DNA of 64,000 nucleotides, from the NCBI GenBank assembly GCA_012845835.1, contig JABAKD010000009.1, positions 9,973,785 to 10,037,784 on the forward strand. The letters are read 5' to 3'. The notes below the pieces were generated by a model. The model was not told the DNA's origin. It saw only the letters and a list, made by a program, of their open reading frames with translations, and did no database searches. This document shows, piece after piece, positions 7,814 through 59,201 of the stretch. Every line of letters starts with the position of its first letter. Position 1 is the stretch's first letter. A program made the position numbers and the translations under genes. The DNA comes from Undaria pinnatifida. Taxonomy: Eukaryota > Sar > Phaeophyceae > Laminariales > Alariaceae.

Positions 7814-10800
7814 ATGATGCGGACGGTGAGACGAAGAAGGAGCTGGAAAGCTCCGTTTTTATCGGACCTTGGCCCAGCAGAAATTGGCCAAGAAATCCTC
7901 GCAGGGGTCATGGGGTGGCAGACGGTGGTCACGTCACTTGAATTCTGTGAGTACGGAGGATACGGAATGGACGTGTGAAGTTTCCTTTGCACCCGGTTTG
8001 GGTTACTCGTCCCAGTAGGTATGATGTCGTTGGGGATATTTCAGGATCCGACACCGCTTCTTCTTTGTGTGAAACGCACGGTGCGTATCCATAAAGGATG
8101 TTCCGTTGCAGGGATTGCTCGGGGTTTGGCCACCGCGGTAATTTTCAGGCGGAACGCGGTCACCACGGGATAGCACCTTCGGAGACTGCTCTATGTGTTT
8201 TAGATATTGAAGACTATAGATCAAACGATATTGTCTCCTGAAACGATAAGGAGAAATACTAATAGGAATCGGGAACCGGCATAAATAATTATACCAGGTA
8301 TGTTGTTTGTTGTTCCAGAGAGAATTCGGCGTTATGGTTCATAGTTTTTTCTGGTGGAGTACGTACGTAGCTTCCTTTGACAGCGCTTTGACAGCGCAGC
8401 AGCTGGCATTGTTTGGTTGGTCGCGCTTTTGGAGATACCAGGTGAATACCGCACGGGATGGTGTTGGCAGACTGGTAGACCACGCGAACAGACAGAGGTA
8501 TTGTTTACAACTGGATAGCGGTCGCTCACTGGACCAGATAATTCGTGATTTCGTGATTTTCGACTTCATCGCTAGGCGGCGAATCGGGGAATTAGCGAGA
8601 GCAAGAAGCAACATCCAAGGCGATATGATTGCACCCCTTTGGCCGCTTGCCATTTCTTAATCCTCATCCCGAAAAAGATGGGTGTGCCGAGGGAGTCTTT
8701 GGCGTCATTTGCCGGTACAGAGAAAATCCGTCACTACATAGTAACCTTATATCGGCTGCGCTCATGGGCCAAAGCACCCCTGTACCGGGACGTAGCCACA
8801 AACGCCCGTTCTCACTCATTATTGTTTTCTTTCGCAGACGTAGATGGAAGCTTTCATGAAGTTTCCACCACTTCCACGGAAGTATCCACTACCTCCACTG
8901 AAGCTTCCACTACCTCCACGGTAGCTTCCACTACTTTCTTCTCGGAAAACGCTTACATCGAAGCTTCCACTTCTTCCTCCATCGAAGCCTCCGCGAAATT
9001 TCGAACAATTTCATGGATTTTTGCGATGCTTCTGCGGAAGCTTTGGCTACTATTTCATACTATGGTTTGATACTGCCATGGAAGCTTTCGTAAGCTATTT
9101 TCATGGATTACTTCATCAACTTCCATGGGAATGCTTCTTCAATGGAAGTACACGGAAGCTCCCAAGCACAGCGACCTAGAGTTTACCCACATACAGCGAC
9201 CTAGAATGTTACCAAGCACATCGACCTAGAATCGTTCCACGCACAGCAACATAGATTCTAGCGACTCAAAGCATACGTACCCTAGCACATCGACTTAGAG
9301 GATACCTAAGCATCCTTACCTAAAGCATTGCCAAGGACGTTAGCCTAAAATATTTCCAAGCACAGCGGCCTGTTGGTTATATAGAGCTACCCACTGAAAC
9401 ACGTAGTGACGTGACTAGTTCTATACTTCGTATATCCAACAAAATAATGTCGTGGGTTTCGAGTCCCACCGACTTCATATATGTGACTACGTAGCTCAAT
9501 GGGTAGCGCTATGTAACCAACACGGCCTAGAGTCTTCCGTGTTGTTGTTAACCAACTACTACAGCAGTTGTTGGACGATACACCCCAGCCCCGTGGTATT
9601 TACTCCGCAAAGTTCTCTGGGCTGCCCCAGTGACTACCTGCGAGCTGGACGAACACTCCGCTAGAACTGGTCAATCTGAGGTTTGTGGTACGACGAGATC
9701 TTTGCGATGCATAGTCTATAGACTATATATATCTGTGATGGCGGCGGCAAAATGATAGACACCACTGCTCAATCGTGTTATGATATAGTCTCTACAACCT
9801 CTCCTTACCCCCGCCGCAGACGCTTCGTTGTTCGTGAGCGGCGATGATTCAGATAAACACGCAACAGCCGAAATCTTCATGTGCATCGCGGGCGTGTCTA
9901 CCATTGCGTTCGGCTTGGCCACCAACCTGCCGTTCATTGTGGCTCCGTCGGTGCTGTACGCTGGGCGACAAACCGGGTACGAAACGGAGCTCTCTGTTTG
10001 AAAGAAAGTATTCCCCGCTGTTGTTCGGTATCCTTGGGTATTTACATAGTGATGGCCTGCACATACTCTCTCGTTGCCTGTGTGAATGCGTTAGTATGTT
10101 CGCAGCAGCATTTTCCGGTAGGATGAGGTGCATGTTACACGTGGAAAAAAAGTGCGTGGACACATGCGTGAACCTCGCTTCACGTGAAGGATCAAAGCAG
10201 CAAAAGTTTATCGAGTCCACCCCGCCCCGATATGCCTCCTCATGCCGTATCAGAATCACGATGGGTGGACAGCTGGCTGCCCAAGCCCTTGCGAACGCCG
10301 CGGCGGTTCTGGTGTTCTGGTTTGCATTAAAGCTCAAGCTTGTATCTTACATACCGACGGCACTCCGAATTGGCGCTGGGTACGGTGTAGCAGTGCTGGT
10401 TGGTGTCTTGGGGATGCGCAACCTTGGTCTCCTGGTCGCAGACTCTTTCGTCTTGTCGACGATTACGTGGGAAAGTGTGAGTAAGGTATTTTACCTGGAT
10501 TTTTTTGTCGACGATATTTGACAGGGAAAGACGCCGATTGTCGTGCATGCATACTTACTTGGTGTATCTTACGTCTATTCTAATCGTGCCAGAGCGACGA
10601 ATATATCCCCGACGCTGGTGGTTCTTCAATTAATGCCGTGGCTTGTTCGTGCGATCAACTTTGTGACGTGTAAGCTGGGTCGTTTCGGCGATGTCATGGC
10701 GCCGGACCTCCAACTGATGCTTCGTTTTATTCCTCATGGCCTGTCTTATACGAAGGTTGTTGGTCTTGCAGTTATTACTGCCGCTTCAACGGCGACGTCA

Positions 10801-13800
10801 CCCCGGCTCGCAGTGCGAAAGTGGGTCTACGTCTTGGGGGTTCCTACGGCCTTGACCGCGGCTGTGTACGCTATTGCAGATGTGGCCAAGTTCCAAGGAT
10901 ATGCATTAGCAGAGAATACTCCTCTATCAAACTGGCGTGGTGGAAGTTTTGGGCTGGTCGATTTCTCCGTCATCTTCGACGATCCAGGACTGTACACGTT
11001 CTACGTGGTCCGGACATTTATCAGCATCGTCATCAACATTTCGAGCGTCCTGCTTGTCCTAATCGACACAGTTTGCCTGCAGGTGAGAGTGCGCCAACAG
11101 CACCACGAAGAGTTCAATATATCACGATGTATATACCGATGCAAAGAAACAGCACACCCATGAGATGCTGTGTGGCACGCCTTCGGGTACCTCCTAAACT
11201 CATGTCGCGCTCACGCTCACCGAGTACATGCAAGTACCTTCGTACCCTATCTCCTCCAGTAAGTCGACGCCCTTCAGCCCTGGTGATCGAAGCTATGGCC
11301 AAAAGAGGCAGGGTGTCGGGCCGCAGAGCAAGTGCGCCGCAGGGGGACGGATTGCGTGTACCTCGCCTAGAAGACATTTCCCCCCCGGATTTGGCTTGCT
11401 ATTCCTACCCTCATCCGATTTAGTACGTCTCAACTGGAGGCCCTGCTTTAGTCAATTTTATTGGGTATTTACACAGTGGAAACATACTCTCCAGCGGGGT
11501 GACAGAGGCACGTTCAGTCATGCGATAATCCAGACGGTTGACTCAAGATATTACTAAATCCTGATGCCAGATAAGACTAAGAGAGAAAACACGGCCACCT
11601 TTCTTGTTTCTCTGACATAGATGTCTTCATTGGCACGGTGCTGAGTGTCTGCTGTGGGTGCATCATCTGGTTGCCATTTTATCCGTTCTGTCTTCTTGCG
11701 TTTACCTTGGAATAGGATGAGTTACTTGTATTATTATTTTCCTGCCCGGCGCAAAGAAACAGCACACCCACGAGAACTTGTGTGGGACACTATCAGTGCT
11801 TTCTCCAATCCCATCGTGCCCACGATTATCAAGTACGTGCAAGTACCTAGCTAGGCTATCCTATCCCCTCGAGTCAGCCGGAGCCCCTCTGTCTTATGAT
11901 GATGGTCAAACCAAAAGCCAGAGGAACGACTGTCTCGGGCCGTAGAGCAAAGAGCTATAGGGGAACGTGAAGCGTGTTCCTCGCCAAGAAGACATTATCC
12001 CTTTGGTGTACGTTTGTTATTCCTCCCCTCACCTGAGATGGAACGCCTCAACCGAAATCCCAATTGAGCCCAGAATGGCACCGACGCAACACCCACGCAC
12101 GTGGGAACGCATGAGCCGGGGATTGAAAATCTACCCTAATGTCTCATCGAGTGGTCGCCATCGCAACACCATGAAAGGAAAACTCCTTCGATAGAGAACA
12201 CCTACTGGATATTGGAAGATACAAATTGAGGTCCATACGTACCTGGTTGATGTTCAATCACGACGCAGGAGTACACTGGGTATCTTATTTTTAGATGCGG
12301 AGAGATAAAGTACACTCGTATGCGACGAGACTCGAGTTTGTTCCTTCTCACCGGTGTCTTGTACATAATCGACTTGTAACTAGCCTACACCATAGGTACC
12401 TGGGAATGTTGCAGGGAGTGCTGCAGGGAAAAACTCTGAAGAATGGACTGTTGGTTAGTACAACGACCCGCGGAGTACATCTGCCCGTAGCTTGGGTACT
12501 GTCCCGTGATGATCAGGTGACGGTCACCCCTCCTTCGATCACTCCCTTTCGTCTTCTTTTATATTTTCTTTTCGTCACATGAGCTTCACAGTTCACTTGG
12601 TGCCACCTCTGCAGCTCTTATCACAGAAACAGCCTTGATACGCACGCATCAGCATTACGGGTTATGAGCCTCGTGTGGTTCAACATTGACTCCGCCCTGT
12701 TTCCTCCTCCGCCCCCCCTTGATTTCCAGCGCTTTCGAGGCGTCGTGAAATCTGCTGAAGACACGGATTATTCCGACGCAATCGGAGGTACCGCCAAGGT
12801 AAGGAAGAGGTTGCTCATGTATTGTATAGCGTTGTTAGCCACTCCACGTGTATTGCCAGGAGTGCAGCGCTCGCTGTGGGTAGTCAAGCGCCATGAACGG
12901 GGAAGGCATCGGGAGGGCCGGAACGCCATCCTCCATGCGCCTCTCGGGAGCTCTGCTATTTTAGGTTGCGGGTGAGAATGACACAACCCTTCATGCCAAA
13001 CAACGATCGTAGCGTATTCGTTTGTATCATAGCGGTGGTGCTCATCACGATTCAGTTCTATTTCAAAACCATCGTGTGGGTACTACCGAATGCGTATGCG
13101 TGAGGTAGGTGAGTGGACCGGTGTCTATGGATGTCCCGCCTACGTCCTGGTTAGCAGGTGGTTCGCTGCACGCTCAATGCAAAACGGCGACGCTACGAGC
13201 AGACACGAGGGGCTATTTTTGATGTGGTACATTGTCTAAACTGCGTTACAGCCAATCGTCCTTCGTGTAACGCAGGTAACTTTACCGCATGTTGCCCTTA
13301 CAGAGTTCAGTTGGTTGGGGATTTCGATCAAAAGGATGGCAGGGTTCTAAACCTTTGCTTTTTTTTAACTTGCTAGTCTAGCGACCCACGTTGAAAATTT
13401 AAAAGAAAGCGGCTCTGCCGTCACTTAAGTAGGGGGTAACTGGTTACGACCAGAATTACAGTCTACTAAGTTTAACATGCGTTATGATTTATCCCACAAC
13501 GAGATCGTAACCAGCATGGATGGCTAAAACTCAAACGTACGTTAGTTTAAGCCCTGCGTCTGGCATCCTCTTTCCAGGTCGGCTGGTATCCGAACCGTAA
13601 ACGCCGGCAACAGATTAACACCTTCGACAGGCCGCACGTGAGCGATATGCAGCACCCTCCTACAGCCACACCTACCCGATGCTTTTTTTGGTGCCGTATA
13701 CGCTCATGTGCAGTTTCGGCTTATGGCCTGCGCCGTACCTCTGATGTCCTTCCTTGGGAACCTCTTGGGCGTAACCACCCAAGCAGCTTTCGTGCAGTCC

Positions 13801-16800
13801 ATGATCGTTGTGTTTACTGGCGGAAAAACTGGTTTGAGTGTGGTCGTCACAGGTGCGTTTAACAGGTATTCTTCCGTGCAGATTATTCACCGTTGCGCAC
13901 CGGAATTTCGGTTGTACGTGGTCACTGCAACATACCAGGTACATAGTAGACCAGAGTGGTTTACCGTATCCTACATCCTGGCCTGGGTTGTACAGGCCGA
14001 CACGATGTTGTCAAAGCTTCTGACCTTTACCACCTCGCGTGTTATACTGTGGTCGGAGTTCGACGCATTCAGAAACCGCTGTGAACTTTGTTTTTTTCAG
14101 GAATCCTCTTCATCTTGAGCATGGTGATGTGGCCCTTGCTTCCGGTACTCGTACCGGCCCACATCTCGGGAGCTCTGACGATAGTCATTACCTTGAGGTG
14201 CGTCAAACAAATGGTACGCGAATCGTGATCTGCACAGGTTGGCTGCCAAGGGCATGGCCATAGGGGTATGCTTCATTTGGATCCAAACGGACTCGTACAA
14301 CGCCGCAGGCTAGGACAACTTAGAGTTGACCTACACGTGTGGAAAATCCCCTCACCTGTCAAACTGTTTGCCGTCGGTCAGTTAAAAAATCCGCTACCCA
14401 ACTACGTGTGGTGTAACGCGTAAGAGGGGCAACTGGCTGTCACAGTCGGAAGACGGGGAAGCTCTCAATCAATCGTGTTTGCGCGCGTGTAGGGAAGCAT
14501 GGGTAGCACCAGCTTTATGTACTCCTGTAGAATGTGTTTGTTTAGGTGTTTGGCACATTCTGTGTTTCCGATTCATCTTTACCTTCGACCCACAGCCCTT
14601 GGCTCGGGTCGTCGGCGTTCTTTAAGACAAACGCGACCCATCATGGATCTTGCTTAGTTTCGTATACGTAACTGGGACTGTGGCTCTCGCCCTTCATTCG
14701 TCACCATGTTCAGTACCTGGTAACTAGGTTGCCAGGATGGCATCCACGACACACGCTAAATGTCAACCATCTCAAAGGATTGTCAATACCCGTTGTCAGC
14801 TGCTTCATACAGTCATATGTGGAGACTGCGCAAATTTCAAGACCGTTGGCAAAACGGTTTCGGCGCCATTATGCCGTCGCCATTGCTTTTATCCGGGCTT
14901 GAATGCCCTGGCTGACACTACCGTGGTTCCACCTGATGGAGGCCAGACCCCCCGCTCGTCCATAAGTAGAACAATGGACGTTGTGGCCGCAATGCCGTTG
15001 CAGATGTTTCACGAAGTAGTAGTTAAACACAAATACGACAGGCAGTGTTCGCAAAGCCCGGCGCCATTGGCGGCGCTACAGTCTGTGACATCTACTCCCA
15101 CCATTCCGTGCGATGATCCGCTAATGTTTACGCTCGACAGGTTTTTTACCGCGATAAGGGTGATTGACGTTTCCCACGCGGAAAATCTCCTCATGTTTGG
15201 TGAGAAGAGAAGTGAAATGAACACGAGCAAGCGACATTCTCTGAACGCGTATAGCACGACAGAGGGGCAAAGACGATCTTACCCCGGAGTCCACAGCTAC
15301 ACTAAACCATCCCGCGGGAAGGGTAGCGTTGTTTGGGGCGAAGGGTTTTTACCGGTTGAGCTCGTCAAGTGTGGAATTGTCGGATCGTCCTCGATCAAGT
15401 AATTTCGCGAGTATGTTAGGTTTAGGACTAACACATAGAAGTTGGCCGGCTGGGCGAGCAAATGCCGTCGTCGGAGACATGTTTCGGGTGATGTTGATAT
15501 TGACCTCCTCATGTTAGGAGCTCAGAGACTTCTTAGAATATGCTGCACGCCTAGCGTGGGATAACTCCACCTCTTCGTATGAAATTTTGAGTGCGGTTGT
15601 GCGCCGCGGTTCCAGCCATAGGTGGTCTGATGCTTACGTATCCAATGTACCCAACCCCTCCAACCTCCTCGTGTGCTGGTTACGACGATTAATCATGTAC
15701 AGCTCGAGTTTGAAGCGGTGTCACCCCTGCTGAATATGTCGCGCTCGGCACGGTGTATGGGAGGGATTATGGCCGCCCGGTCAGGATTATTGTGCAATCG
15801 AGAAGCTTCGTTGGTCGTATTTAATTGGTGATGACCCACGCTCTTGCACGTTAATGGTAGCAGCTATGACGACGTGTGATCGCAAGTACCTCGGGTTAGC
15901 AATCACACAGCTACAGCGCCAACCAACCCGTGCGTGATCACGGCTCGCGCTTACCACTAACTTACGCCGCGTGATGGACTCGTCTATGCATGATTTTTAC
16001 CGTTTTTAGGTGTATCGATCCTTTTGATCCCCTTCTCCTTCGATTTCGTGGATGCCCTATGCGTGGCAACCGTTCTCGGCTTCATTTGTACCATCAGCAA
16101 CAAGATAGTATCACGAGGCATGTGCTACAAAAATAGCAAAGTCGCCCTGTCGCTTTCGGAGGAAAACGTGACTCCAGAAGTGAAACCGCCCAATGAGACT
16201 CGGCAATTTACTTCAACTGCCGGAAGCACGACGAAGGCATTGAGCCCGATCGATGATGAGAAAGACACCGGTAAAACCAAATTGCCATCGATTGGAGGCG
16301 ATCACTGCCCGCCAGGATATCCATGGCCGCTTGGGATGCCGGGGGTGACGGGCATGCCCCACCCCATGATAAGACACCAATCTTTGCCCGCTATACCCGT
16401 GTCCTGGACGGCTACATCGCAGTTTAAGAACGAAGAGGATGACATAGAGGTGGGGGGCGGAAGGCGGCGCCTTTCCCACCTTCCCGATCGTGTAGTTCGA
16501 CAAAACACACGCCAATCTTACGGCCAAGCTAAAGATATCACGACAAGCGAATTGAGCACAGACGTGTCGCATGGTGACCATTCGTCAATAGCTTCGACGC
16601 TAAAGTCGATATCATTATCGTCATCCTCGCGACGCTCTATCATCCGAGGATTCCGGCGGGTCAAAGTGGGCTCACGGTCGAAGATACTTCGAACTGACAA
16701 GGTACAAGCAGTCGGAAAGGATGGCAAGACGCCAGGCGAGATAGAGTCCGAGAACAGTCCGACCGTGCACTGGAAACTGGCTCTCGTTGCCACGGTGGAG

Positions 16801-23716: not shown

Positions 23717-23784
23717 CTTTGCAGGCTGTCTTTAGTTCGTGTGTCTGTTGTTTGATTGTTAGTTTTTTATGTCACTTCTACCTC

Positions 23785-38173: not shown

Positions 38174-38367
38174 AAATGCTGGTTGGATTCAGGCTCCTGG
38201 CTGCGTCTTCTCCTGGCTAGAGCTACCAGGACATAGCCCTACAAATTTCAAATCCTAACTCCAGAAACTCCAGAAACTGGCCCAAAATCCCCAATAAAAA
38301 GTGTGGCACCAGGAGAGGAGCATATCCATTGTGAAAGGCCAGTCTCCTGCACTATTTGGTTTTTGCG

Positions 38368-48700: not shown

Positions 48701-51700
48701 CCGCGGCATGTGGCCGAGCTTGCTGATTTTAATACTTCCGCGCGTGAAAATGATGAAGTGAGAGAAGGTAGGACTGGCGCGCAAACTCGTGCAGTCAACC
48801 AGCAGAGTTTACCCGGCCTCATGGCCACCCTAGGACCCATCTTCGCGACAGAGGTCGTGTACTCATTGTTGTCGGAGCAGAGAGCAGGTGATGAGACGGA
48901 ATTGCCGAAAGAACTGGTTCAGGATGTAGAATCGGAGCCTGGTAGTTATCAGGAAGCCCAGCGTTCGAAGTACGCTAAGATTTGGGAAGGAGCCAGGTCT
49001 GCCGAAATTGAAGGCTTGATAAGAGCAGGAACGTTCACGTTGGCAGTAAAAGTCCCGATAGGCTGTAATGTGATTGATGCTAGATGGGTTTTCAAGTGGA
49101 AAGCAGACGAAACAGGAAAGATAGTGAAGGCCAAGGCTAGGCTTGTAGCGAAGGGCTTCAAGCAGAAGTATGGTGTGGATTATCTTGAGACATTCTCGCC
49201 TACCGCAAATGCTGCATCTTTACGATTGCTGATAGTGTTGGCGTGTTTGTACAATTTGGAATTACTCCACTGGGATATTGAGCAAGCATTTGTTCAGTCG
49301 GAATTGGATCACGAGGTGTTCATGAAGTTGCCTCCTGGCTGCGGGTCGATGTCAGGAAAGGTTGTCCGTTTGAACAAGAGTTTGTACGGATTGAAGCAGG
49401 CTTCTAGGACATTTTACAAGAGGCTGGGGTCGGAACTGAAAAGGATTGGTTTTGAGCAGTCAATGTCTGACCCCTGTGTCCTGCGTTTCATGATGGGAGA
49501 CGAGGTATTGGGGATGGTCGCGATCCACGTGGATGACATTATGTATGCAGAAAGTAAGAGCCTTGCCAAGGTGGTTGTGGCAGCACTAGGTGACTCTCTT
49601 CCTACGAAGGACTTGGGGGAGGTCAAGTTCTTTCTAGGTTGTGAATATATTCGCGACCGTGAGGCTGGTACGATTGAGATTTCTCAGGAAAGTTATATCA
49701 GGAGTGTTCTCGAGAGATTCAATATATGTCGCACCAGCTCGATCCCTGCTTCCCTTGCCAATGATAACAGGTCCGTGATGGAGGATGAGGGGGCAGGAGA
49801 TGTGCCGTTCCGAGAGGTGGTGGGGAGCCTGATGTGGATCGCCAGCCAGACAAGGCCCGACATCGCCAATGCTGTGCGGGCGGTGGCGAGGCACTCTGAC
49901 GAACCAAAGAGGAGCCACTGGAAGGCAGCTCAGAAGATTCTCAATTATCTTCTGGAAACGGCGCATCTGACTTTGAAGTTCAAGCAGGATAGTTCGGTAG
50001 ACGCAGGCACGTTGGTGTATGTAGATGCTGACTTTGCAAGTAGGGCCACTGACCGTAGATCAGTTTCGGGTGCGATGGTTTTCGTGGCGGCGATGCTTGT
50101 AGTTTGGATTTCTAGGACGCAAAAATGCGTTTCACAGTCAACTTCAGAAGCAGAGTATCTTGCGATGGGAGGTGGTGTAAATGAGGCTCTGTTTGTAAAC
50201 GGAATGCTTCAGTTCCTGAGGCCTAGTGCGAAGCCTCGTAAGATAGATGTCCTCGAAGACAACGAGGGGGCGATTGCGCTCGCAGAGAACCCGCTGAGCT
50301 CGAGTAGGAGTAAGCACATCGATGTGAGGCACCACTTTCTTAGGAATCTGACCGAGGAGGGTGTGATCGAAGTCACCCACGTCCCCAGCGAGAAACAACA
50401 CGCGGACATCCTCACGAAGGCGTTGCCGAGAGATCTTTTTGAAGTTCACCGCGACTTTGCACTTGGTATCAAGAAGTAGAAGTCTGACTCGTTTTGTTTT
50501 TGTTTTTGTTTGATATGTATTTGGTCTGGTAGATACAACAGCCCCTAGGGAGGGTGTTCGTGATAGCGGCATGTATGTATCAACTGTACTGCGGTGAAAC
50601 TCTGATTGGTTGGTTTGAATAGCAGAACTGTTGATTGTATGTTGTTGTACCAGAATACTCTTCTTGTGGTGCTACGGTACTTCGGTAGATTGTACATGTG
50701 CACGAGTTATACATCGGACCGTAGTGGTGTGTACGGTACGTTGGTATGTCGGTACGTTGGACACATTGACGAATAGGAACATTCCTGTAGTGTTGCTAAC
50801 ACGATATAGCTTGTCTCAACGAACAGCCTAGCAATAAGTTACAGTTACATACGTTGTGTCACGGAGGTAAGTTACAGGGATCGTCTCGTGGTATCACCCA
50901 CGAGCAGTCCCACGGGTATATACGAGTAGGCACTATGCGAGGAGGTTTAGGTATTCGACTACGAGCGGTTGTTACTGGGCTGTGGAGAGTTGGCCCACAT
51001 GACCCACTCCACTTTCTGACCTGTCTCTCCAGACATTGGTCTCTCTAATATAATACCTTTCTCCAGAAGCCACTGATTTACCAACACGAACTCGGTAAGT
51101 AAGGCAAAAATGCAGGCACATGTCTGCGGGAAAGAGACGGTACGGAGCGACTTGGACGGTCACACCCCACCATCACAGCAGTACAACAGCAGTACAACAG
51201 CAGTGGAGTCAGCACGTACCGACCAATCCATAGCGGCCGCGAGTCGACGGGTACTTATACCGCAACTGAGACTCATACGGTACAGGAGTACGATGAAGAA
51301 AACTTTTGCTGCAATCTGCAGTGCCCGTAAGAAGGAGGTGTCGTTAGGCAGCTCCTGTTGACTGAGAAAAAAGAAGGTGTCGCTAGGCGACGGGGTGGAC
51401 TTCGACCCGAACTCGGTAAGACAAAGAGTACGACACGAACTCGGTAAGACAAAAATGCAGGTACATGTCTATCGGAAAGAGACGGCACGGGGCGAGTTGG
51501 ACGGTCGCACCCCACCATCACAGCAATACAACAACAGTACAACAGCAGTGGAGAAGCACGTACCGACCAATCCATAGCGGCAGCATATAGTAGCAATACG
51601 GCAGCGCAGCGGTACACATGTGGTCCTGTTGTACGCCAGGAGCTGGGTGGGGTTTGCAATTTTTTTACGATTCTCTACATTGCGGGGAAGATCGCGAGCC

Positions 51701-54700
51701 GTCCCCGGGGGAGGCTTCTCATGCCCCGCGCTCGCGGAGTTGGGACTCGTCGGCGGTTGCGTCGCCGCGGTCACCGAGGGCTTGTGTGTGGGGCGGGCGT
51801 GGCACGGGCGTGCGGTCGCCAGGGGCCGGGTGGCGAGCGGTAGAGCGGAGAGTTGTAAGTGTACCGGTTTCATAGTACGCGTAATTCCGCCGCTTGCACC
51901 TTAGCGCTTAGAGGTAATATTCCTTACGCATACAACGGTGGCGCTTAATTTACCCAATACACACAGATAAAAATCGCAGAGTTGCAATGTTGGTTATATA
52001 AAACTACCCACTGGCCCACGTTGTCACGTTACTACGTAGCTCAGTGGGAAGTTCTATATAACCAACAAAATATATGTTTGGGAGTCCGCCAATTGACTCT
52101 CACCGACTTCGTAACAGGGATCTCCGGGGCTCTCTCCCCTCGCCAAGCACTACCGTAGTACTTAGGAGCAAACTATCACAACCATTCACGTCTCCAGCGC
52201 GCACGCTCGCAAAGACGTTGTTTCCTCTATACATAACCAATATGCAGGAGCCCAGACGACGGCTGCTTCCCAGAGATGACCAGGACAGCTTCGTAAAGAT
52301 CTTAGGCTTCGAAAATTGATTATGAAGGATGCCCCTGGGTTTTGGTCTTGGTTTTCGGAGCGACTTTTCAGGAACCATGGTACTTCCACCTTTCTTTGTG
52401 TAACGAACGGTAGTAGCGTCGGGAGGATACTGATGAACTGTATTTTTCATTACTCCTTTGACCGTGAGGAAATTATAATTTTGTGTAATAATGCCGTAGC
52501 GATTACAACGTAGGGGGGCTTTTTGTTGTGCTCGACAATGATACAGCGGAGATGATGGTTGAATATAGTAGAGAGTTAAAGTAGTAAGTTGGCTCTATTG
52601 CAGTTGGAAATTCATTGCAAAACATCCTCGTTGGGCGGGATTTCTCATTGTGTTTGTATAGCCTTTCTCACCTGATTCATCCCTTTATGACAGACTTGAT
52701 TATTACATGGATGCCTGGGAATGAAACTCAATGCGTACATGGTGCATTGGACCATCGGCTGGTAACCCCACCACATCAACCGTGTCCGCGCATCGGGTAA
52801 GCCCGCCACGCTTCGAGGATCAAGAAAAATAAGTAGATTGGTGTTTCCATGGAATCGTCTATTATTTCTATATATAATAACTATATTCTACTACTATGGT
52901 AGTCCAAAAAAGCTTCCACGGAAGTGCATGGAATCTCCCAAGGTTACGGATGAAGCTTCGATAGAAGCACTGTGGTGGGAAGTTTATTTTCTTTAATGCT
53001 TTCATCACGGATACGTCCAGCGACAACTAACTTCCACGGTAGCTTCCATGGAAGCCCCCACTTTCTAAAAAAACATCCACCGCTTCCGCGGAAACTTCTG
53101 CTATTGTTTCTATGGAATCCATTGCATGGAAATACAACTTCCACGGTAGCTGAAGCTTCCACCGCTTCTATGGAAGCTCCCACTTCCAAAAACATTTCCA
53201 CCGCTCCCACCGAAAATTGCACTTTTCACATGGAATCCATTGCATGAAAGCTCCCACAACTCCCATAGGAGCTTTCCCTGTTTCCGTGGAAGCTTCCATC
53301 GCTTCCATGGATGCTTCCACTACTTGCATAGACGCTTCCATGAAAGGAGTAGAAGCTTCCCGAACTCATGGAAGTGGAAGCTTTACTCGATGGAAGTAGA
53401 TGGAAGCTGCCATGGAAGCGGCTTTCACATATTTTTCCCAAGGACAGCGATCTAAAACATGCCAACGCACTGCGACTTCGAATATTTCCAAGCGCGTCGA
53501 CATAGAGTATTTCCGATCGCAGCGACCTAGAATAAAAACACAATAATAATAGCAGCACACCGACTGAACAGACGTCTTCACCGTGATGAAAAGTTGGAAC
53601 GCCTGAGTCCGAAAGTCACCTCCGCAACCTTTAAATGTTTTAGGACGTCCATCCTTCAACCTAAGGTAAATTCGTGTCGACATGACATGTCTGAAAACAA
53701 CCAGGCACAAATTGTGGCCCCACTGGCACCAGATTCGGGAGAGAGGGCTCTTGTTTCTTCCCTCGCAATTTACACGCAAGCCTACAAACAGGATACGTGA
53801 ACTGGTCCCATGGACGCATTCAGGAAGCAGTCGACTCAACAACACGCGCTACGACAGCAACAGCAAGCAATTTTGAAGCTACATCAAAAGTTAGTTGAAG
53901 GCTTCGCGACGTCTCTCCCTACGGTGTGGTCGAGATTGCTAATAGTAAAAGCCCCCGGCTCTGCCAAGCGCGATGCGATTTGTCTTGCTACGTCTTCTCT
54001 CCCCTGCCCCGCCGCAGACGCTGCGCTATTCGTGGAAAAGGAAGACTTGGACGAGGATACAATAGCCGAAATCTTCATGTTCGCCGCGGGAGTGTCCACC
54101 ATAGTATTCGGTTTGTCCACCGACCTGCCGTTCCTCGTGGCCCCTTCGGTCCTCTACGTTGCTCGGCAATCCGGGTGCGTACGCTGCTAAGACAAACTAC
54201 CGGTAAGTTAGTTTTGTTTGGACGGATGCCCCGCTGCTGCCTGTCGGCTCTCCGCTCTCCTATTGGACAGTGCGTGTAGTAGTGCTGATCATTGGTTGCA
54301 TAATCTCGCCTCCCGGCGTATTAATCATGCTATGCCAACAATACAAGCCTAGTCCTCACAAGAGAGACGTGCAAGCAGTGAGATAGTTCGGAACTACGTG
54401 AATTGAATTTCGCTTTCCCTACTAACTCAATCCAACGAAAATAATGACTGAGCCAATAAATACCCTTACACAATAATCCTCGTGCGAGAACAGAATTACG
54501 ATGGGTGGGCAACTGGCTGCCCAAGCCTTGGCGAACGCCGCGGCAACGCTGGTTTTAGCGTGTGCTGTGAAGCTTAATCTTGTGTCGTACATACCGACGG
54601 CGCTCCGAGTCGGCGCTGGGAGCGGCGTGGCGATGCTTGTCGGCGTGTTGGGGATGCGCAGCGTTGGTCTCCTGGTCGCCGACGCTTTCATCTTGCCACC

Positions 54701-57700
54701 ATTTACGTGGGAAGCTGTGAGTATATAATGAACACCAGTACACTACATCAATACGTAGTGAGAACTGTTTATATCGTTTGTTGTTGTGGATGTTCTGTTG
54801 TTTTCCAATCGTGCCAGAACAATTATTTGACCCGCAATGACACGGACCGAAAGTAAACGCCACGCTTGTTTCGTGCGCTCAACCTCACGGTGTCTACATT
54901 TATTTAGCAATTCCATGACACCGCAACCCCCACCGACGCTTCGCTGATTGCCGCATGCCGGGGTCTATCCTGTACACCCAAAGGTTGTTGGTCTTGCACT
55001 TGTCACAGCTGCTTCGACGACGACGCCATCGGAATTTGCAGCGAGAAAGTGGATATACGTGCTGGTTGCGCCTCTGCTACTGACCGTGGCGGTGTACGCC
55101 ACTTTTGATAGATCGAAGTTTGCAGGTTATTCTTCAGCAGCTTATACGCCCCTGACAAACTGGCGTGGTGGGAGCTTTGGGCTGATAAACTTCTCGGTCA
55201 TGTCCGACGCCCCGGGACTATACATGCTCTACATACTCCGAACATTTTTCAGCATCGTCATCAACGTTTCGAGCGTTTTGCTTGTGCTGATCGACACGGT
55301 GTGCCTGCAGGCGAGAGCATATTAGACTATGATATGGTGCTAGTATAACAGCTTAAGGTTTTCAGCGAATTGTGTGTTCTGCGATTATATTACAGGTATC
55401 AACCCGTAGCGGTAGTGAAGCGCACAATCATTCACATACCTCCCGGATTCACAGTACGTACCTTTCGTCTTCGCGTCTTCGTGTTTCAACGCCATCAATG
55501 CTTTCAAAAGTATTGTCAACAGATACTTACTTGTAGTATTTATTCTATTGTGGCGTTTACCTTTCTTGATCAAACTACATGTCTCGTGCTGGGTTCGTGG
55601 CCGGTTCCCTAGCAGAGGGAGGGGCACCCTAGAGGTTCATAGTAGCGGACAGGACGTCGTCCTAGCGCGTTAGGGCGTGTAGCCGTGCCGTCATTTGCTA
55701 GCACCCACAAAAGGTACTGCAATCCACAGGCAGCAAACATCCTATTGCCAAGATCGCTTCATTATGTAACGCATTTTTAGTAGTAGAAGTGCGTATTAAA
55801 TAGCTCTCCTGTGTGTATCCGCTGTCGTCTACAGGCCATGTGAAACGCTGATACGGGTAGTACGCACAGGACATCTGCCAAACCGTAAGCCGGGGGTGTC
55901 AAACCCATTTAGAGGCCTCGCCGAATAGTCTCTTCCGTTGGGTGATACTTTCTCCAACACCACGCCTGAGAAAGTTTGGTTTCACTGTTGTATCTAATAT
56001 CTGCCAAACTCGTGACGGTCCACTGGCTTTTCCCCCGTGCTCTATCTCGGCTCGGTTTGCAGCGTTTTCGTGGCGTATTGAGATCTGCTGGAGAGACGGA
56101 CTTTTCTGACGCAATCGGGGGTACCAAGAAGGTGAGAAGGTGTGTCGATTCCATCGACTACGGTGTGGAATGCTCAGTCGTCCCATGCACCGAATTATCC
56201 TATGAAGCTATGGGGGTCATTTCGCGGGCCTGGGGTGCAACGCTTCGAACGGAGCAAGCGACACTGGGAGGCGAAGAAACGAAAAATAAATGGGCGATAT
56301 ACTACCCTCCATCCGCAAAGAGGCCAGAAACTCGAGACTTTGCGCTCGCAAATTCAAGAGCTCAAATAGATTCCGTATCATGTATCGTTCTCCAGGGCTT
56401 GTCACACTTCAGGTTTTCACCGGACGAATTTTGTCGAGAGGTCCGTAGTCTGTGTATTTTTCGTGATAGATGCGAAACGCGAGCCCTACCCTAGTCATCG
56501 CGTCGCTTTCGTGATTTGCTCAGCTCACAATGTCAACGCTCTGGCCTGACTTGAGGCGCATATTGTAAGTTTCAAGAGTGAGTACAGGTTTTCAGAGCCC
56601 GAGTCATACTCCGTGCACGTGAGAGTATCAATCGAGTTGCCGATGTACTGCAATGGTTTAAGGTCTCGATACGATCTAGCCGGTGGATTGATCGAGTTTG
56701 CGTAAGTTCGTTGTATACTACCCTCAAGTAAAGATGTGTTCGTTGAATAGTACCTGGTACTACTCACTCGACCACGTAATCACGGGTCTGCTGTAGTAGA
56801 TAGTGCTACATAACTAACAAAATACCTCGCTTGTTGTATTTGTAAGATGTACCTCTGTCTTAGAATTGGCAACCTCAGAGCCCCACATCGGCACCATGGA
56901 ATCATGGGCGAAAATCGTACATTTGAGCCAATAATAATGGGAAAAGGGAGCACAGGCAGATTTGCTAAAATTGCGGTAGACCACACTACCAACCTATTAC
57001 ATAGGGTATTTCGTACATACCGTCTGCATGATTGCCTCCCAACCTATGCCAAACGAAGTATGACTAACGAAGTAACGTAATTGAGCGCGGGTACACCAAG
57101 CGTTCCTTTCTAAACACTGACGATTTGCACTTCTCCCCCGCGTGCTCAATGGTGGTGACATTGCACATGACCACATCACCTCGCCTGTTGTACTTTGCAA
57201 TATATAGTCTATCTTTCATATAATTAGCGATGCCAGAAAATTATGGTAACTACATGGTTGTACCTATCGATTGAAATATGTTGTCTTGCGATCCATGTAC
57301 AACAACAAATTATGAAGCTTTAGCACGTTGTTTACCACACCCAAAGATTGTGTTGCCTACCACATCTATCATTAAATCTTCTAGAATAATAAACAATACC
57401 AGGCAGGTGATGTAAAGGGATGTCTTCTTGCTACAACCGTCAGATTTGTCCCCTTTAAGGAGTAACACTTTCCGCGCACATATTGAAGTGTCCCGCCCGC
57501 CCCTCCCTCCACCCGATCCCTCTTGTTCAAACGCGCCCCAGCTACAATCAAAATCTGCCAGACAGAGTAGTAAACACTACCAGCCGGCTGATATCACCTC
57601 ATTATCTTTCTGGCCATCCAACATCAAATCTTCTAGAATAATAAACAATACCAGGCACAGGTGATATAAAGGGATGTCTTCTTGCTACAACCGTCAGATT

Positions 57701-59201
57701 TGCCCCCTTTAAGGGTTTATAGTTTCCATGCACATATTGAAGTTCCCCCCCCCCCCCGATCCCTCTTGTTCAAACGCCCCACCTAAAATCAACATCTATC
57801 TGCCAGCCTAGTAAACACTACCAACCAGCTGAATCTGATATCACCTCAGTATCTTTCTAGCCATCCATGCCGTAGCTCCAATTCATTTCCGCCCCCCCCT
57901 CCTTTTTCTGTTCTATTGTTTTTTTTCTCCCCACCCTTTTGTTCAAACGCCCCACCTACAATCGTAATCGGCCAGAGTAATAAACATTTCTACGCAATTG
58001 ATATCACGTCATTATCTTTCTAGACATCCATGACGTAGATTTTATTCATTTACCCCTGTTCCCCCCCCGCAACGCCCCCTCCTTCCCCACCACCCGTACG
58101 ATCGCCTGGACCTAGCACCACGCGTATAGCAAGCCCCTACATATATGCGCAATATACGCGCGATCGGAGTATCACACACAGCTTGCAAAGATGAGTTCCG
58201 ACAAAATCTTCGATCTCACAGCTGCTGAAGTGTATTTTTATTGTTATAATAACTAACTAACAAAATGTTTACTTTGAAACTCGAAGAATTACTCTCGCCA
58301 GCGTTGATCTTCGGGGACTTCCCTGCGCCACTCACTGGACAAGTGTCGAGGAATACGTTGCCGTGACCATTCACAATATTCTCCAGCGTGAAGCACCCTC
58401 GACAGTCGTAAATACGAAGTCGGTGAGAGTCAAGCTCACGACACACCCATGCTAGCTATATAGCACTATCCACTCGGCCACTCCATTTTAATTTCGAATA
58501 TCACTATTATTATGCTTCGCAGTTATTATTCTCGATCGTGTTTCGCGCTGGGAAAAATCATGAATAATAGTTATGATAGTGTGTTGCTAGACACTTGTCC
58601 AGTGGGGGGGGGGGGTCCCCTGAGATCAATTATATCGAGATTGGTGCCTGAGCTCCAAAGTAAACAGTTTGTTGCTTAAATAGCACCATCCACTAGATCA
58701 TTCAGTCATAGTGGCCTAAGTGGTCTACATTATTGGATAGTGCTGTATACCAGCTACCAGGTTGCTAATAAGATGTAATATCTACTGGGGCCTCGATTGC
58801 GGTGCGAGCCGAAACACGTTGTATCCAGTACATCAATCGCTAACGTACACGACGCCAGCTGGTATACAAGAAGCTGTGAGCACGAACTGGCTTAGGTAAT
58901 TCCGCTGGTACCCTCTGGTTCAATTCGTTGTCGGCTCGACTGAGAACCACAGTAAAAATACCGATAGAACAAGCAAACACCAACAAACTAAGCACTACTG
59001 ATCGGTCATTTTCCACCCCCCCCCAACCAATGCTTTGCGACGTCGCATGTCTCCATGTTCAGTTCCGGCGTATGGCTTGCACCATACCTATGATGTCCTT
59101 CATTGGGAATCTCGCGGGCGTCACGACCCAGGCAGCGTTCGTGGAATCTATGATCGTCGTGTTTGCTGGCGGCAAAACGGGTCTGAGCGCCGCCATCACA
59201 G
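42752..59201 (+). CDS. AzgA-like nucleobase permease, copy 3 (exons 1-6; 3' exons not found)
   Basis: Exons: 42752-42890, 54018-54174, 54494-54716, 54984-55310, 56063-56131, 59063-59201. Exons 2-6 have exactly the lengths of the other two copies and all six are open in phase. It is the most diverged paralogue, for example YAALFVEKEDLDED at the start of exon 2 and FTWEA at the end of exon 3. TM8 keeps LIDT (D277). TM10 has FVES (E333), the residue typical of AzgA proteins, where copies 1 and 2 have Gln. Intron 1 is 11.1 kb and hosts a complete copia element. Intron 4 begins with GC instead of GT (CTGCAG followed by GCGAGA). The donor after exon 6 is GTGGGT. No match to exons 7-9 is visible up to 64000. 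Either intron 6 exceeds 4.8 kb, or the gene has lost its 3' end and is a pseudogene. Confidence 0.7.
43335..43620 (-). repeat. SINE candidate, minus strand, second body copy
   Basis: Shares its body with 23785-24060 and has a B-box-like GGTTCGAATCTTTCC (minus strand, near 43545). It lies in intron 1 of permease copy 3. Confidence 0.45.
43640..43785 (+). repeat. Dispersed repeat with tRNA-like segment
   Basis: 43646-43715 (ACAAGGCTGAGTTTGTAAGC, then TTTTGCAAGTGGTCAAACGG and ATACCCCACTAATACC) recurs at 43930-44003 and at the right window edge, 63917-64000. It includes TGGTCAAACGG, similar to a Leu/Ser-tRNA A box, and GGGTTCGAGTCCCAC (43759-43773) is a perfect B box. There is no matching acceptor stem, so it is a tRNA-derived repeat rather than a tRNA gene. 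Confidence 0.5.
43930..44003 (+). repeat. Dispersed repeat, second copy
   Basis: Same phrases as 43646-43715 with small indels: ACAAGGCTGAGTTTGTAAGC and GGTCAAACGGACTAATACCC. Confidence 0.6.
44248..44262 (+). other. Short GC hairpin
   Basis: GCCGCC and GGCGGC pair around a TTC loop, in a GC-rich patch (44241-44270). Confidence 0.5.
44540..45202 (+). repeat. Tandem repeat split by the copia insertion, left part
   Basis: Recurrent phrases GTGTCGCTAGGCGACGG, CTGCAAGCTGCAGTACCCG and GACTTCGACCCGAACTC appear at irregular spacing. The same array continues at 51087-51480, so the retrotransposon landed inside it. Confidence 0.7.
45198..45202 (+). repeat. Target-site duplication, left (CGAAC)
   Basis: CGAAC directly precedes the left LTR and is repeated directly after the right LTR (51087-51091). 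Confidence 0.85.
45203..45734 (+). repeat. Left LTR of copia element (532 bp)
   Basis: Begins TGTTCGTGATAG and ends CCAACA, giving the TG...CA ends. It matches 50555-51086 except at 45235 (C here, T at 50587). A TATA-like GGGTATATACGAG lies near 45562, and CTAATATAATACC near 45695. Confidence 0.95.
45823..47343 (+). CDS. Copia gag-protease polyprotein
   Basis: 506 aa. Residues 1-180 are Gln/Gly/Ser-rich with a coiled-coil-like start (ERMDSLESRVSQMLDML). From about residue 186, VPKAPEFIGTDVSYPSW begins the copia gag core, where a W after F-x-G is typical. From about 374, WYADTSTSYHMT is the aspartic protease active-site segment, followed by a protease-like LKNVLYSPNLGYNLFS. The active-site triad reads D377-T-S rather than D-T/S-G. 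I see no CCHC zinc knuckle, which copia gag proteins usually carry, and the gag part is short. It ends at TGA in the overlap with the pol frame. It would form the virus-like particle and mature the polyprotein; whether the protease is active is doubtful. Confidence 0.85.
   Translation: MAEQEGGDPAANQQGDPQGFGERMDSLESRVSQMLDMLSNQQQMLQTVVETHQRENVESSSSRAAPRGIELESGVHQSGAAGRTAGSTGGDTLGFGVSDMRVGSRGVVDPGLNPRVSDENHSFVPAVNFGSVDGTVGGALGSQSSVPPTTSASEWWGKVASGNTLIPVADSSSGESLGGGLFKKVPKAPEFIGTDVSYPSWSQNFLLKARHYNLSEPFTCDIDIKIADVNFDLTPWVEKGYSVGVLRQHEIAWWFLFDCLKKDSDCKARIIPHPSQTGKPETDENESGEQCAIPDSDLVCRNGSYRMSDDCQKVLLAACRKEVVLKACDDLSRMWYDVSGLKCLTTSRDDLIMSAVSNDMILKAVNKARYVEDWYADTSTSYHMTDSLSCMRDLKPCHRSVNGIGGVSCEVAYSETLDLVFVTADSEFSVELKNVLYSPNLGYNLFSPSAEFDGESWNGLGGPNGVMTAFNGQVTFQNFDGMLIASAYRLGEASVGTVLDSRQPQA
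47294..47340 (+). other. gag-PR / IN-RT frame overlap (+1)
   Basis: The pol frame is open from 47294, just after a TAG at 47291. The gag-protease frame stays open to its TGA at 47341. Joint expression therefore needs a +1 shift somewhere in these 47 bases, or initiation at 47306. I see no exact copy of the Ty1 slip site CTTAGGC; CCTAGGA lies just upstream, at 47289-47295. Confidence 0.6.
47306..50479 (+). CDS. Copia pol: integrase, reverse transcriptase, RNase H
   Basis: 1057 aa. Integrase zinc module: H22/H27 and C51-x2-C54 (CSGC). Integrase catalytic triad D82, D146 and E182, with 35 residues between the last two (RSDNGGEF and QYNGVAERG). An acidic Pro/Ser/Gly-rich linker spans about 310-520. 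Reverse transcriptase from about 590 (ARWVFKWKADETG, RLVAKGFKQKYGVDY, WDIEQAFVQ) with catalytic HVDDIMYA (D743, D744). RNase H from about 905 with YVDADFA (D907), SEAEYLA, EDNEGAIAL and SKHIDVRHHF. All key residues are present and the frame is uninterrupted. It begins outside the gag-protease frame and is probably reached by frameshifting. Confidence 0.93.
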   Translation: MVRCWTPANPKHETTMDINDFHNMYAHSHEGLLRTTAKRLGTKLVGDMHACSGCSMSKAIRKGIVRETKTRSDKKLGRVFVDLGGRKDIASVGGKHYPMIVKDDFTRRAWLYFLKNKSDAGSAFRSFLASVRADGVPSLVEIVRSDNGGEFFGGEFASVCNELLIKQEFIPAYSPQYNGVAERGLGLIEEAAMAARIQAKVLFGHVQLPKTDKLWSEAMHWACEAMNHTACSANPGSKSPYEMWYGEPRPARPYPFLKPAYCRWQRPSKLLPKGESCFHVGPSRDHPRDCHRVLTRAGTIQETRDVTWEVLPSQLPPLQPSLPIEVAEEGGEDSDDDVETEIWPLVGRGVAHTLLKRDAVPSGAGVEEVESVGAGSIGPSFSVPSSPAEPSAPVNISSGSVAPSVSSPVNDGEGQGGQESGEVEMGDLGGDDEAESMGQEGHDDEESIGSGGLVEAEASPPAARRPRHVAELADFNTSARENDEVREGRTGAQTRAVNQQSLPGLMATLGPIFATEVVYSLLSEQRAGDETELPKELVQDVESEPGSYQEAQRSKYAKIWEGARSAEIEGLIRAGTFTLAVKVPIGCNVIDARWVFKWKADETGKIVKAKARLVAKGFKQKYGVDYLETFSPTANAASLRLLIVLACLYNLELLHWDIEQAFVQSELDHEVFMKLPPGCGSMSGKVVRLNKSLYGLKQASRTFYKRLGSELKRIGFEQSMSDPCVLRFMMGDEVLGMVAIHVDDIMYAESKSLAKVVVAALGDSLPTKDLGEVKFFLGCEYIRDREAGTIEISQESYIRSVLERFNICRTSSIPASLANDNRSVMEDEGAGDVPFREVVGSLMWIASQTRPDIANAVRAVARHSDEPKRSHWKAAQKILNYLLETAHLTLKFKQDSSVDAGTLVYVDADFASRATDRRSVSGAMVFVAAMLVVWISRTQKCVSQSTSEAEYLAMGGGVNEALFVNGMLQFLRPSAKPRKIDVLEDNEGAIALAENPLSSSRSKHIDVRHHFLRNLTEEGVIEVTHVPSEKQHADILTKALPRDLFEVHRDFALGIKK
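50547..50554 (+). promoter_or_regulatory. Polypurine tract
   Basis: AGGGAGGG immediately before the right LTR, the expected primer for plus-strand DNA synthesis. Confidence 0.8.
50555..51086 (+). repeat. Right LTR of copia element (532 bp)
   Basis: Same length and ends as the left LTR with one substitution (50587), then followed by the CGAAC target duplication. Confidence 0.95.
51087..51600 (+). repeat. Tandem repeat split by the copia insertion, right part
   Basis: Continues the GTGTCGCTAGGCGACGG / GACTTCGACCCGAACTC array of 44540-45202. It also contains a duplicated ACAAAAATGCAGG(T/C)ACATGTC...CACCCCACCATCACAGCA segment (about 51108-51200 and 51452-51545). Confidence 0.7.
51991..52320 (+). 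repeat. tRNA-like SINE candidate with inverted arms
   Basis: GTTGGTTATATAAAACTACC (from 51991) is inverted at about 52041-52068. TAGCTCAGTGGG (52037-52048) is a perfect A box. Downstream, GACTCTCACCGACTTCGTA (from about 52094) and AAGAC, then TTTCCTCTAT, continue a body shared in part with the minus-strand copy at 58300-58480. The 81-codon frame starting at 52074 is repeat-derived. Confidence 0.45.
52912..53425. repeat. GGAAGCTTCC palindrome array 3 (intron 1 of permease copy 3)
   Basis: Same degenerate palindromic words as 8850-9165 and 38368-39530, followed at 53440-53535 by units carrying CAGCGA(C/T)CTA as behind array 1. It lies about 0.6 kb before exon 2. Confidence 0.75.
57377..58260. 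repeat. Poly-C dispersed repeat, copy 2, in ~250-bp tandem units
   Basis: Units starting at about 57377 and 57626, plus a partial third, share CTTCTAGAATAATAAACAAT, CAACCGTCAGATTTG, GCACATATTGAAG, a C-run and GATCCCTCTTGTTCAAACGC. The right end, GCGCGATCGGAGTATCACAC to AATCTTCGATCTCACAGC, matches the end of 18290-18850. It lies in intron 5 of permease copy 3 and explains why that intron (2.9 kb) is larger than in the other copies. Confidence 0.7.
58300..58485 (-). repeat. tRNA-like SINE candidate, minus strand
   Basis: On the minus strand TGGCCGAGTGG (58470-58480) is a perfect Leu/Ser-type A box, followed by GAGCTTGACTCTCACCGACT, a degenerate B box plus the phrase shared with 52094. The 76-codon minus frame here comes from the repeat. 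Confidence 0.5.

What the first reader, a model, noticed from the sequence alone, without database searches (positions are those of the whole stretch)
7814..59201. Head-to-tail triplication of a divergent, intron-rich AzgA-like permease gene
Three same-strand copies at 17-18 kb intervals share nine-exon (copies 1, 2) or at least six-exon (copy 3) structures with invariant lengths for exons 2-6 and closing phases. Copies 1 and 2 are near-identical in places; copy 3 is older. The family is placed by motif order (NLP...AP, LIDT, F-V-Q/E-S...GGKTGLS, IPFSFDF), yet it is far from textbook AzgA sequences. A tandem expansion of a nucleobase carrier suggests dosage or substrate diversification.
Basis: partly seen in the sequence, partly recalled or inferred. 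Interest (0 to 1): 0.7.

Follow-up and report, generated by a model that had tools for sequence, protein, structure and literature searches.

The report
Three old kelp-like purine-carrier gene copies
A large, probably brown-algal genome carries three neighbouring, long-diverged and apparently working copies of a membrane carrier related to plant and bacterial adenine/guanine permeases, with a changed binding site that suggests the copies carry different molecules.

Summary
Three same-strand nine-exon genes start at 7814, 24694 and 42752. Copy 3, cut by the window end, is complete: exons 7-9 lie within the next 23.3 kb. Exons 2-8 have identical lengths and closing phases in all three. A genome-wide search kept 27 matches, which by position are the 27 exons. 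The AzgA placement is supported, though Pfam and NCBIfam miss it: the best solved relative is Arabidopsis AZG2, an AzgA profile mislabelled 'tail protein' matches 3 of 3 copies, and profile comparison gives E about 1e-17. Copies 1 and 2 are 87% identical in the membrane core and copy 3 about 70% identical to either. Core dS is 0.47-0.66 and dN/dS 0.15-0.29, so these are old, constrained paralogues rather than recent dosage copies. Differences from textbook AzgA: TM3 motif 2 is lost, one TM8 Asp replaces a pair, the TM10 Glu is Gln in copies 1 and 2 but Glu in copy 3, and about 200 variable residues precede a probable TM14. Substrate diversification is favoured but untested.

The parts
7814..7946 (+). 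copy 1 exon 1 (start ATG, TM1 region)
9820..9976 (+). copy 1 exon 2 (157 nt)
10254..10476 (+). copy 1 exon 3 (223 nt)
10756..11082 (+). copy 1 exon 4 (327 nt, carries TM8 Asp275)
12730..12798 (+). copy 1 exon 5 (69 nt)
13714..13852 (+). copy 1 exon 6 (139 nt; TM10 FVQS...GGKTG, Gln331)
14101..14197 (+). copy 1 exon 7 (97 nt)
15141..15199 (+). copy 1 exon 8 (59 nt)
16010..16839 (+). copy 1 exon 9: TM12/13, about 210-aa variable insert, probable TM14, stop
24694..24823 (+). copy 2 exon 1
28059..28215 (+). copy 2 exon 2
28484..28706 (+). copy 2 exon 3
28972..29298 (+). copy 2 exon 4
29787..29855 (+). copy 2 exon 5
31064..31202 (+). copy 2 exon 6 (TM10 FVQS)
31445..31541 (+). copy 2 exon 7
32487..32545 (+). 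copy 2 exon 8
33085..33881 (+). copy 2 exon 9, stop
42752..42890 (+). copy 3 exon 1
54018..54174 (+). copy 3 exon 2
54494..54716 (+). copy 3 exon 3
54984..55310 (+). copy 3 exon 4 (GC donor)
56063..56131 (+). copy 3 exon 5
59063..59201 (+). copy 3 exon 6 (TM10 FVES); exons 7-9 follow outside the window at 84780-84876, 85853-85911, 86420-87255 on the same scale
45203..51088 (+). Copia-type LTR retroelement inside intron 1 of copy 3 (not part of the gene; makes up about 5.9 kb of that 11.1-kb intron)

Best explanation
Three functional, long-diverged paralogous genes encode 677-, 665- and 681-residue carriers of a divergent branch of the AzgA (NCS2, UraA-fold) family. Shown: gene structures, tandem arrangement, sequence constraint, family placement, binding-site substitutions. 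Inferred from the family: a 14-helix elevator-type, probably proton-coupled symporter, with substrate held between TM3, TM8 and TM10 of the core domain. Two duplications are inferred: first copy 3 versus the ancestor of copies 1 and 2, then copy 1 versus copy 2. The acidic TM10 residue that contacts the purine in AzgA is Glu in copy 3 and in the four bacterial relatives examined, but Gln in copies 1 and 2. I therefore think the most likely consequence is split specificity: copy 3 nearer to the hypoxanthine/guanine/adenine type, copies 1 and 2 shifted towards oxidised purines or another nucleobase-like solute. About 200-213 fast-evolving residues are inserted between TM13 and a conserved probable TM14, perhaps a regulatory segment.
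For: Identical lengths and closing phases of exons 2-8 in three copies and three open full-length frames. The 27 genome-wide matches kept are these exons. phmmer to AZG2 E=2.6e-8, 2.8e-8 and 3.6e-8 for copies 1, 2 and the core of copy 3, 2e-9 with a profile of copies 1, 2 and partial copy 3. phrog_27398 matches 3 of 3 copies (best 2.5e-12, near full length), and that profile is AzgA-type because three bacterial AzgA-type permeases match it at 6.8e-106 to 9.4e-154. hhalign to bacterial AzgA E=2.2e-17 over 381 columns; in a repeat 1.6e-18, against a lowest E of 0.056 in 30 column-shuffled runs (runs without a reported hit dropped) and 0.53 reversed. A bacterial AzgA queried against the genome gave three places, all exons of copies 1 and 2, though weakly (E 0.017, 0.046, 0.39). 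Core dN/dS 0.15, 0.28, 0.29. Published motif 4 is matched at 8, 9 and 10 of 12 positions. E394 is proposed to contact substrate in AzgA (PMC11527162, passages), and replacing UapA Q408 by Glu lets it recognise hypoxanthine and guanine (PMC3405029, passages). Joining the C-end directly to the core extends the AzgA profile match to position 428 of 434 with +3.8 bits for copy 2 (+0.6 bits and no extension for a hand-scrambled end) and to 424 with +1.6 bits for copy 3 (copy 1 not tried).
Against: PF00860 and NCBIfam do not recognise the proteins. AzgA motifs 1-3 are weak or absent: motif 2 scores 6 of 13, no better than shuffles. The TM3 stretch APSVLYAGRQ.GITMGG holds no Asn where AzgA has N131. 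TM8 has one Asp where AzgA has D339 and D342, and three alignments place it differently. So the substrate may not be a purine at all. The same UapA paper states that Q408E causes dramatic loss of transport activity although it widens recognition, so a Gln/Glu exchange need not give a working carrier of new range. AZG1 matches are weaker (4.7e-6, 4.3e-4, 0.0059). In columns where copies 1 and 2 agree against copy 3 and the outgroup decides, copies 1/2 keep the outgroup residue in 14 and copy 3 in 9, so copy 3 is not simply the ancestral-like one. No expression, transport or localisation data. Equivalence of AzgA E394 and UapA Q408 is from the literature on topology, not tested here.
Confidence: 0.6

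Rival explanations
1. AzgA-fold carriers that no longer carry purines: the changed TM3, TM8 and TM10 site serves another small solute.
For: Motif 2 is lost in 3 of 3 copies, only one TM8 Asp is left, TM10 Glu is Gln in 2 of 3. General family models fail.
Against: Motif 4 is largely kept (8-10 of 12). The YicO-type relative L002 also scores only 6 of 13 on motif 2; that YicO carries adenine is recalled, not from a call. If so, that loss alone does not exclude purines.
Confidence: 0.26
2. Plain dosage amplification: three copies of one carrier with the same job.
For: Tandem same-strand arrangement; constraint on the membrane core.
Against: Core proteins differ by 13% (1 v 2) and about 30% (3 v others), dS 0.47-0.66, inserts are only 29-37% identical, TM10 binding residue differs. 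Intergenic DNA keeps four short matches (27-93 bp) between the two spacers.
Confidence: 0.1
3. One or more copies, most likely copy 3, are decaying or unexpressed.
For: Copy 3 has a retroelement in intron 1, a GC donor and a roughly 25.6-kb intron 6 part of which reads N.
Against: All nine copy 3 exons are open; exons 2-8 keep lengths and phases; core dN/dS 0.28-0.29.
Confidence: 0.1
4. A member of another UraA-fold family (NAT/UapA type or SulP).
For: Same fold superfamily by established knowledge. Two of ten listed phage-collection matches carry the label 'inorganic anion transporter, sulfate permease family protein'.
Against: No SulP or PF00860 match; no NAT signature in 3 of 3. PDB hits are AZG2 and AZG1, with no UapA, UraA or SulP. 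The genome's NAT-type gene is elsewhere (contig C27), matches UapA at 8.7e-18 and a different PHROG.
Confidence: 0.03

Closest known systems
Arabidopsis AZG2 and AZG1 (adenine/guanine permeases; PDB 9j12, 8irl series; species recalled)
   Same: Best sequence matches among solved structures; same order of conserved stretches and a similar TM10 region (GVTT-A-FVxS..GGKTGL in AZG2)
   Different: AZG1 and AZG2 show APGM..NAY in TM3 and Glu in TM10 in the printed alignments; these copies lack the first, and two lack the second. Percent identity and the C-ends of the plant proteins were not examined
Bacterial AzgA-type NCS2 permeases (Ilyobacter, Klebsiella YicO, Deinococcus, Pseudomonas)
   Same: Profile alignment over 381 columns, 23% identity, E=2.2e-17 (three of the four); shared profile phrog_27398
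   Different: The three with complete CDS are 427-461 aa, match PF00860 (3 of 3) and lack the long TM13-14 insert; all but YicO-type L002 match motifs 1-4 fully or nearly
Fungal AzgA / PhZ
   Same: Residue framework for substrate binding (N131, D339, D342, E394) read from PMC11527162 passages
   Different: No Asn in the TM3 stretch, one TM8 Asp instead of two, E394 position is Gln in two of three copies; fungal sequences themselves were not aligned here
UapA (NAT family)
   Same: Same fold and TM10 binding position by established knowledge; Gln there, as in copies 1 and 2 (PMC3405029 passages)
   Different: NAT signature absent in 3 of 3 copies; no UapA among PDB hits at E <= 10

Membership tests
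AzgA-like (NCS2/AzgA) permeases | Sequence homology to AzgA members over the full membrane core | tested here: met
   phrog_27398 3 of 3, hhalign E=2.2e-17, AZG2 phmmer 2.6e-8 to 3.6e-8, shuffled and reversed controls
AzgA-like (NCS2/AzgA) permeases | Motif 4 in TM10: [FY][IV]ESx[AST]Gxx[EAV]GG[RKA]TG (PMC11527162) | tested here: inconclusive
   8/12, 9/12, 10/12 for copies 1-3 (2, 0 and 0 of 200 shuffles as good); Glu kept only in copy 3
AzgA-like (NCS2/AzgA) permeases | Motif 2 in TM3 with Asn/Thr (PMC11527162) | tested here: not met
   best 6/13 in 3 of 3, at three different places, reached by 176-185 of 200 shuffles; YicO-type L002 also 6/13
AzgA-like (NCS2/AzgA) permeases | Motifs 1 and 3 (PMC11527162) | tested here: not met
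   motif 1 7/13 (28, 26 and 16 of 200 shuffles as good; in copy 3 the best place is not TM1), motif 3 3/6 (200 of 200)
AzgA-like (NCS2/AzgA) permeases | Match to Pfam PF00860 above cut-off (covers the wider superfamily) | tested here: not met
   no match at E<=10 for copies 1, 2 and partial copy 3, none at E<=0.1 for full copy 3; bacterial relatives 3 of 3 match
AzgA-like (NCS2/AzgA) permeases | 14 transmembrane helices in two inverted repeats | tested here: inconclusive
   12, 12 and 13 hydropathy peaks; TM14 assignment supported modestly in 2 of 3 copies; no structure model was run
AzgA-like (NCS2/AzgA) permeases | Transport of adenine, guanine or hypoxanthine | not testable with these tools
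   needs uptake assays
NAT (UapA-type) | Signature [QEP]NxGxxxxT[RKG] | tested here: not met
   0 of 3 copies; also 0 of 4 bacterial AzgA relatives
SulP | Pfam SulP family match | tested here: not met
   no family at E<=10 in copies 1 and 2; only Mating_N at 0.18 in partial copy 3

The most novel reading that the evidence does not exclude
A lineage-specific clade derived from AzgA carriers, recognised by neither Pfam nor NCBIfam, in which a TM10 Glu-to-Gln change after tandem duplication split substrate range between neighbouring genes, and a roughly 200-residue loop before the last helix adds copy-specific regulation. It is the only AzgA-type carrier set that my two searches found in this genome.
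Probability: 0.3. Interest if true: 0.55.

Novelty: new variant of a known kind. Interest (0 to 1): 0.38.

Why it matters
Purine carriers of large algae seem little described: five full-text searches returned 0, 1, 3, 0 and 16 papers, and the titles and abstract starts I saw (8 of the 16 for the last) named no AzgA-type carrier of a brown alga or stramenopile. This locus offers natural paralogues differing at a residue known to bear on specificity in two related families, so how TM10 chemistry selects purines could be tested with three genes. It also shows that one eukaryotic AzgA branch escapes two standard family libraries, so such genes may be left unnamed in automatic annotation.

Tried and rejected
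Pfam and NCBIfam scans gave nothing useful for the three proteins. Searches for prokaryotic or viral relatives by back-translated patterns found no confirmed relative (46, 37, 32 and 32 pattern matches, 0 confirmed); these patterns reach near relatives only. Exons 7-9 of copy 3 were sought in 59202-64000 and not found; they lie further on. A first splice of copy 3 was off by one base at exon 8 and gave a false frame shift; corrected. phrog_27398 is labelled 'tail protein'; the label is rejected because bacterial AzgA-type permeases match it at up to 9.4e-154. Copy 3 also matched antibody 35O22 heavy chains, best E=0.0017, better than its AZG1 match of 0.0059; taken as chance, since copies 1 and 2 show no such hit at E <= 10. 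Copy 1 also hit PomA at E=9.8, which is noise. 'Sulfate permease family' labels on two phage-collection records were followed for one (its note says xanthine/uracil permease). Which copy is ancestral-like stayed open (14 against 9 columns). Rfam: no match in the window at gathering score. Organism: genome size 511,146,479 and window GC near 0.50 fit the published Undaria pinnatifida assembly (511.0-511.3 Mb, GC 50.14%; PMC7058681 passages), but 68 contigs against 114 scaffolds differ and I did not prove the species.

Full report
WHAT WAS CHECKED. Self-comparison of the window shows same-strand similarity blocks about 17-18 kb apart between copies 1 and 2 and 18-28 kb apart between copies 2 and 3. 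Comparing short open frames between copies and reading the splice sites gives the gene models. Copy 1 runs 7814-16839 (677 aa), copy 2 24694-33881 (665 aa), copy 3 starts at 42752. Exons 2-6 are 157, 223, 327, 69 and 139 nt in all three, and exons 7 and 8 are 97 and 59 nt in copies 1 and 2. Of 21 introns with both ends in the window, 20 are GT-AG and one GC-AG.

COPY 3 IS COMPLETE. Its exons 7-9 were not found in 59202-64000. The window lies in a 511-Mb genome of 68 contigs. In the neighbouring DNA exons 7, 8 and 9 lie at 84780-84876, 85853-85911 and 86420-87255 on the window scale, with the same 97 and 59 nt lengths, giving an open 681-aa protein (the first attempt was off by one base). The gene is thus about 44.5 kb long, with an 11.1-kb intron 1 and a 25.6-kb intron 6, part of which reads N.

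ONLY THREE COPIES FOUND. tblastn of copy 2 against the genome scored 30 candidates; 27 passed E <= 1 and all lie on one contig between 9981607 and 10061027. Matched by hand to the models, they are the nine exons of each of the three genes. The tool warns that only the best candidates are scored.

FAMILY. Pfam finds nothing at E <= 10 for copies 1 and 2 and only Mating_N (0.18) for partial copy 3, and nothing at E <= 0.1 for full copy 3; NCBIfam finds nothing for 3 of 3 (copy 3 partial). Yet the best solved-structure match is AZG2 (E 2.6e-8, 2.8e-8 and 3.6e-8 for copies 1, 2 and the core of 3), with AZG1 weaker (4.7e-6, 4.3e-4, 0.0059), also with a profile of copies 1, 2 and partial 3 (AZG2 2e-9). 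Copy 3 alone also hit an antibody family at 0.0017, read as chance. tblastn of the copy 2 core against plasmid records gave 339 records; of the 20 listed, 15 are annotated at the match, all as NCS2-type (NCS2 family, AdeQ, AdeP, YicO or xanthine/uracil permease), and 5 have no annotation there; identity 21-26%, best E 1e-5. For copy 3, 10 of 237 are listed: 5 NCS2, one AdeP, one PurP, 3 none. In the phage collection, 10 of 34 are listed: two labelled sulfate-permease family, the rest in records without annotation; the one opened is noted as xanthine/uracil permease. Profile comparison with three bacterial AzgA-type permeases gives E=2.2e-17 over 381 columns; a repeat with four gives 1.6e-18 against a lowest E of 0.056 in 30 column-shuffled runs and 0.53 reversed. 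phrog_27398 matches 3 of 3 copies over nearly its whole length, best 2.5e-12; although labelled 'tail protein' it behaves as an AzgA profile (bacterial permeases 6.8e-106 to 9.4e-154). The same genome has a NAT-type gene on contig C27: a 64-residue exon matches PF00860, UapA (8.7e-18) and another PHROG. A bacterial AzgA searched in the whole genome gave three weak places (E 0.017, 0.046, 0.39), all exons of copies 1 and 2.

AGE AND CONSTRAINT. Counting codon changes (own Nei-Gojobori script): membrane core (430, 431 and 430 codons) copies 1-2 87% identical, dS 0.47, dN/dS 0.15; 1-3 70%, 0.66, 0.28; 2-3 71%, 0.64, 0.29. The stretch after TM13 (196-207 aligned codons) is 29-37% identical with dN/dS 0.70-0.81. 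The last 36 codons are 50-64% identical with dN/dS 0.30-0.60. So the copies are old and the membrane part is constrained in all pairs. Between genes, the two spacers share four short matches (27-93 bp).

ANATOMY. Hydropathy gives 12, 12 and 13 peaks, including one at the very C-terminus (VHWKLAL...). Appending that end directly to the core extends the AzgA profile match to position 428 of 434 (+3.8 bits, copy 2) and 424 (+1.6 bits, copy 3), while a hand-scrambled end on copy 2 gives +0.6 bits and no extension (copy 1 and a scrambled copy 3 were not tried). I read the C-end as TM14 and the variable stretch as an insert between TM13 and TM14; support is modest, and the side of the membrane is not settled.

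BINDING SITE. From PMC11527162 (passages): AzgA N131, D339 and E394 are proposed to contact substrate, D342 to help translocation, and four motifs mark the family. Here motif 4 scores 8, 9 and 10 of 12, motif 1 7 of 13 (16-28 of 200 shuffles as good), motifs 2 and 3 no better than shuffles. The YicO-type relative also scores 6 of 13 on motif 2. The TM10 position aligns without gaps: Gln in copies 1 and 2, Glu in copy 3 and in four of four bacterial relatives. TM8 has one Asp; phmmer aligns it with the first of the AzgA pair, hhalign with the second, MAFFT with neither. In UapA, changing the TM10 Gln to Glu lets it recognise hypoxanthine and guanine, but the paper also says this change dramatically lowers transport (PMC3405029, passages). 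This suggests, without proving, that copies 1/2 and copy 3 differ in substrate.

READING. Two rounds of tandem duplication of a divergent AzgA-type gene, all copies kept under selection, with binding-site divergence between copies 1/2 and copy 3. Dosage is the weaker meaning. Elevator transport and proton coupling are taken from the family, not shown. The host is probably a kelp (size and GC like Undaria pinnatifida in PMC7058681, passages), not proven.

LIMITS. No expression data, no structure model, and no eukaryotic homologues apart from AZG1/AZG2 in the collections used. Three papers were seen as passages (PMC11527162, PMC3405029, PMC7058681); all other papers only as search listings.

Noticed in passing
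45203-51088: Copia-type LTR retroelement in intron 1 of copy 3: LTRs differ at 1 of 534 bases; the 5-base CGAAC flanks both sides if the element ends TGTT...AACA; integrase and reverse transcriptase domains in a second frame. Apparently a very young insertion.
   Followed up: partly
8851-8927, 38364-38536, 39223-39511, 53219-53358: Dispersed arrays of a 12/21-base GAAGCTTCCATG-type repeat, in intron 1 of copies 1 and 3 and between copies 2 and 3.
   Followed up: no
1-4100: Dense field of diverged 62-, 140- and 208-base tandem repeats and other repeats.
   Followed up: no
62683-63915: Repeat family of about 165 bases, four copies 65-95% like the reference.
   Followed up: no
18317-18549 and 57673-57765: Runs of C beside a shared roughly 90-base repeat.
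   Followed up: no
61842-62390 minus strand: Open frame with a sub-threshold match to a UvrD-like helicase C-terminal domain (E 0.0085).
   Followed up: no
14870-15140 and 32224-32486: Intron 7 keeps about 74% identity between copies 1 and 2 just before exon 8. A frame continuous with exon 8 is open for 44 codons in both copies with fewer replacement than silent differences (pN 0.26, pS 0.44), so an alternative, longer exon 8 is possible; nothing alike was seen before exon 8 of copy 3.
   Followed up: partly
L005 1501-1692 minus strand: UapA-like NAT permease exon elsewhere in the same genome (contig C27).
   Followed up: partly
phrog_27398 (library entry): PHROG labelled 'tail protein' matches bacterial AzgA-type permeases at up to 9.4e-154.
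   Followed up: yes
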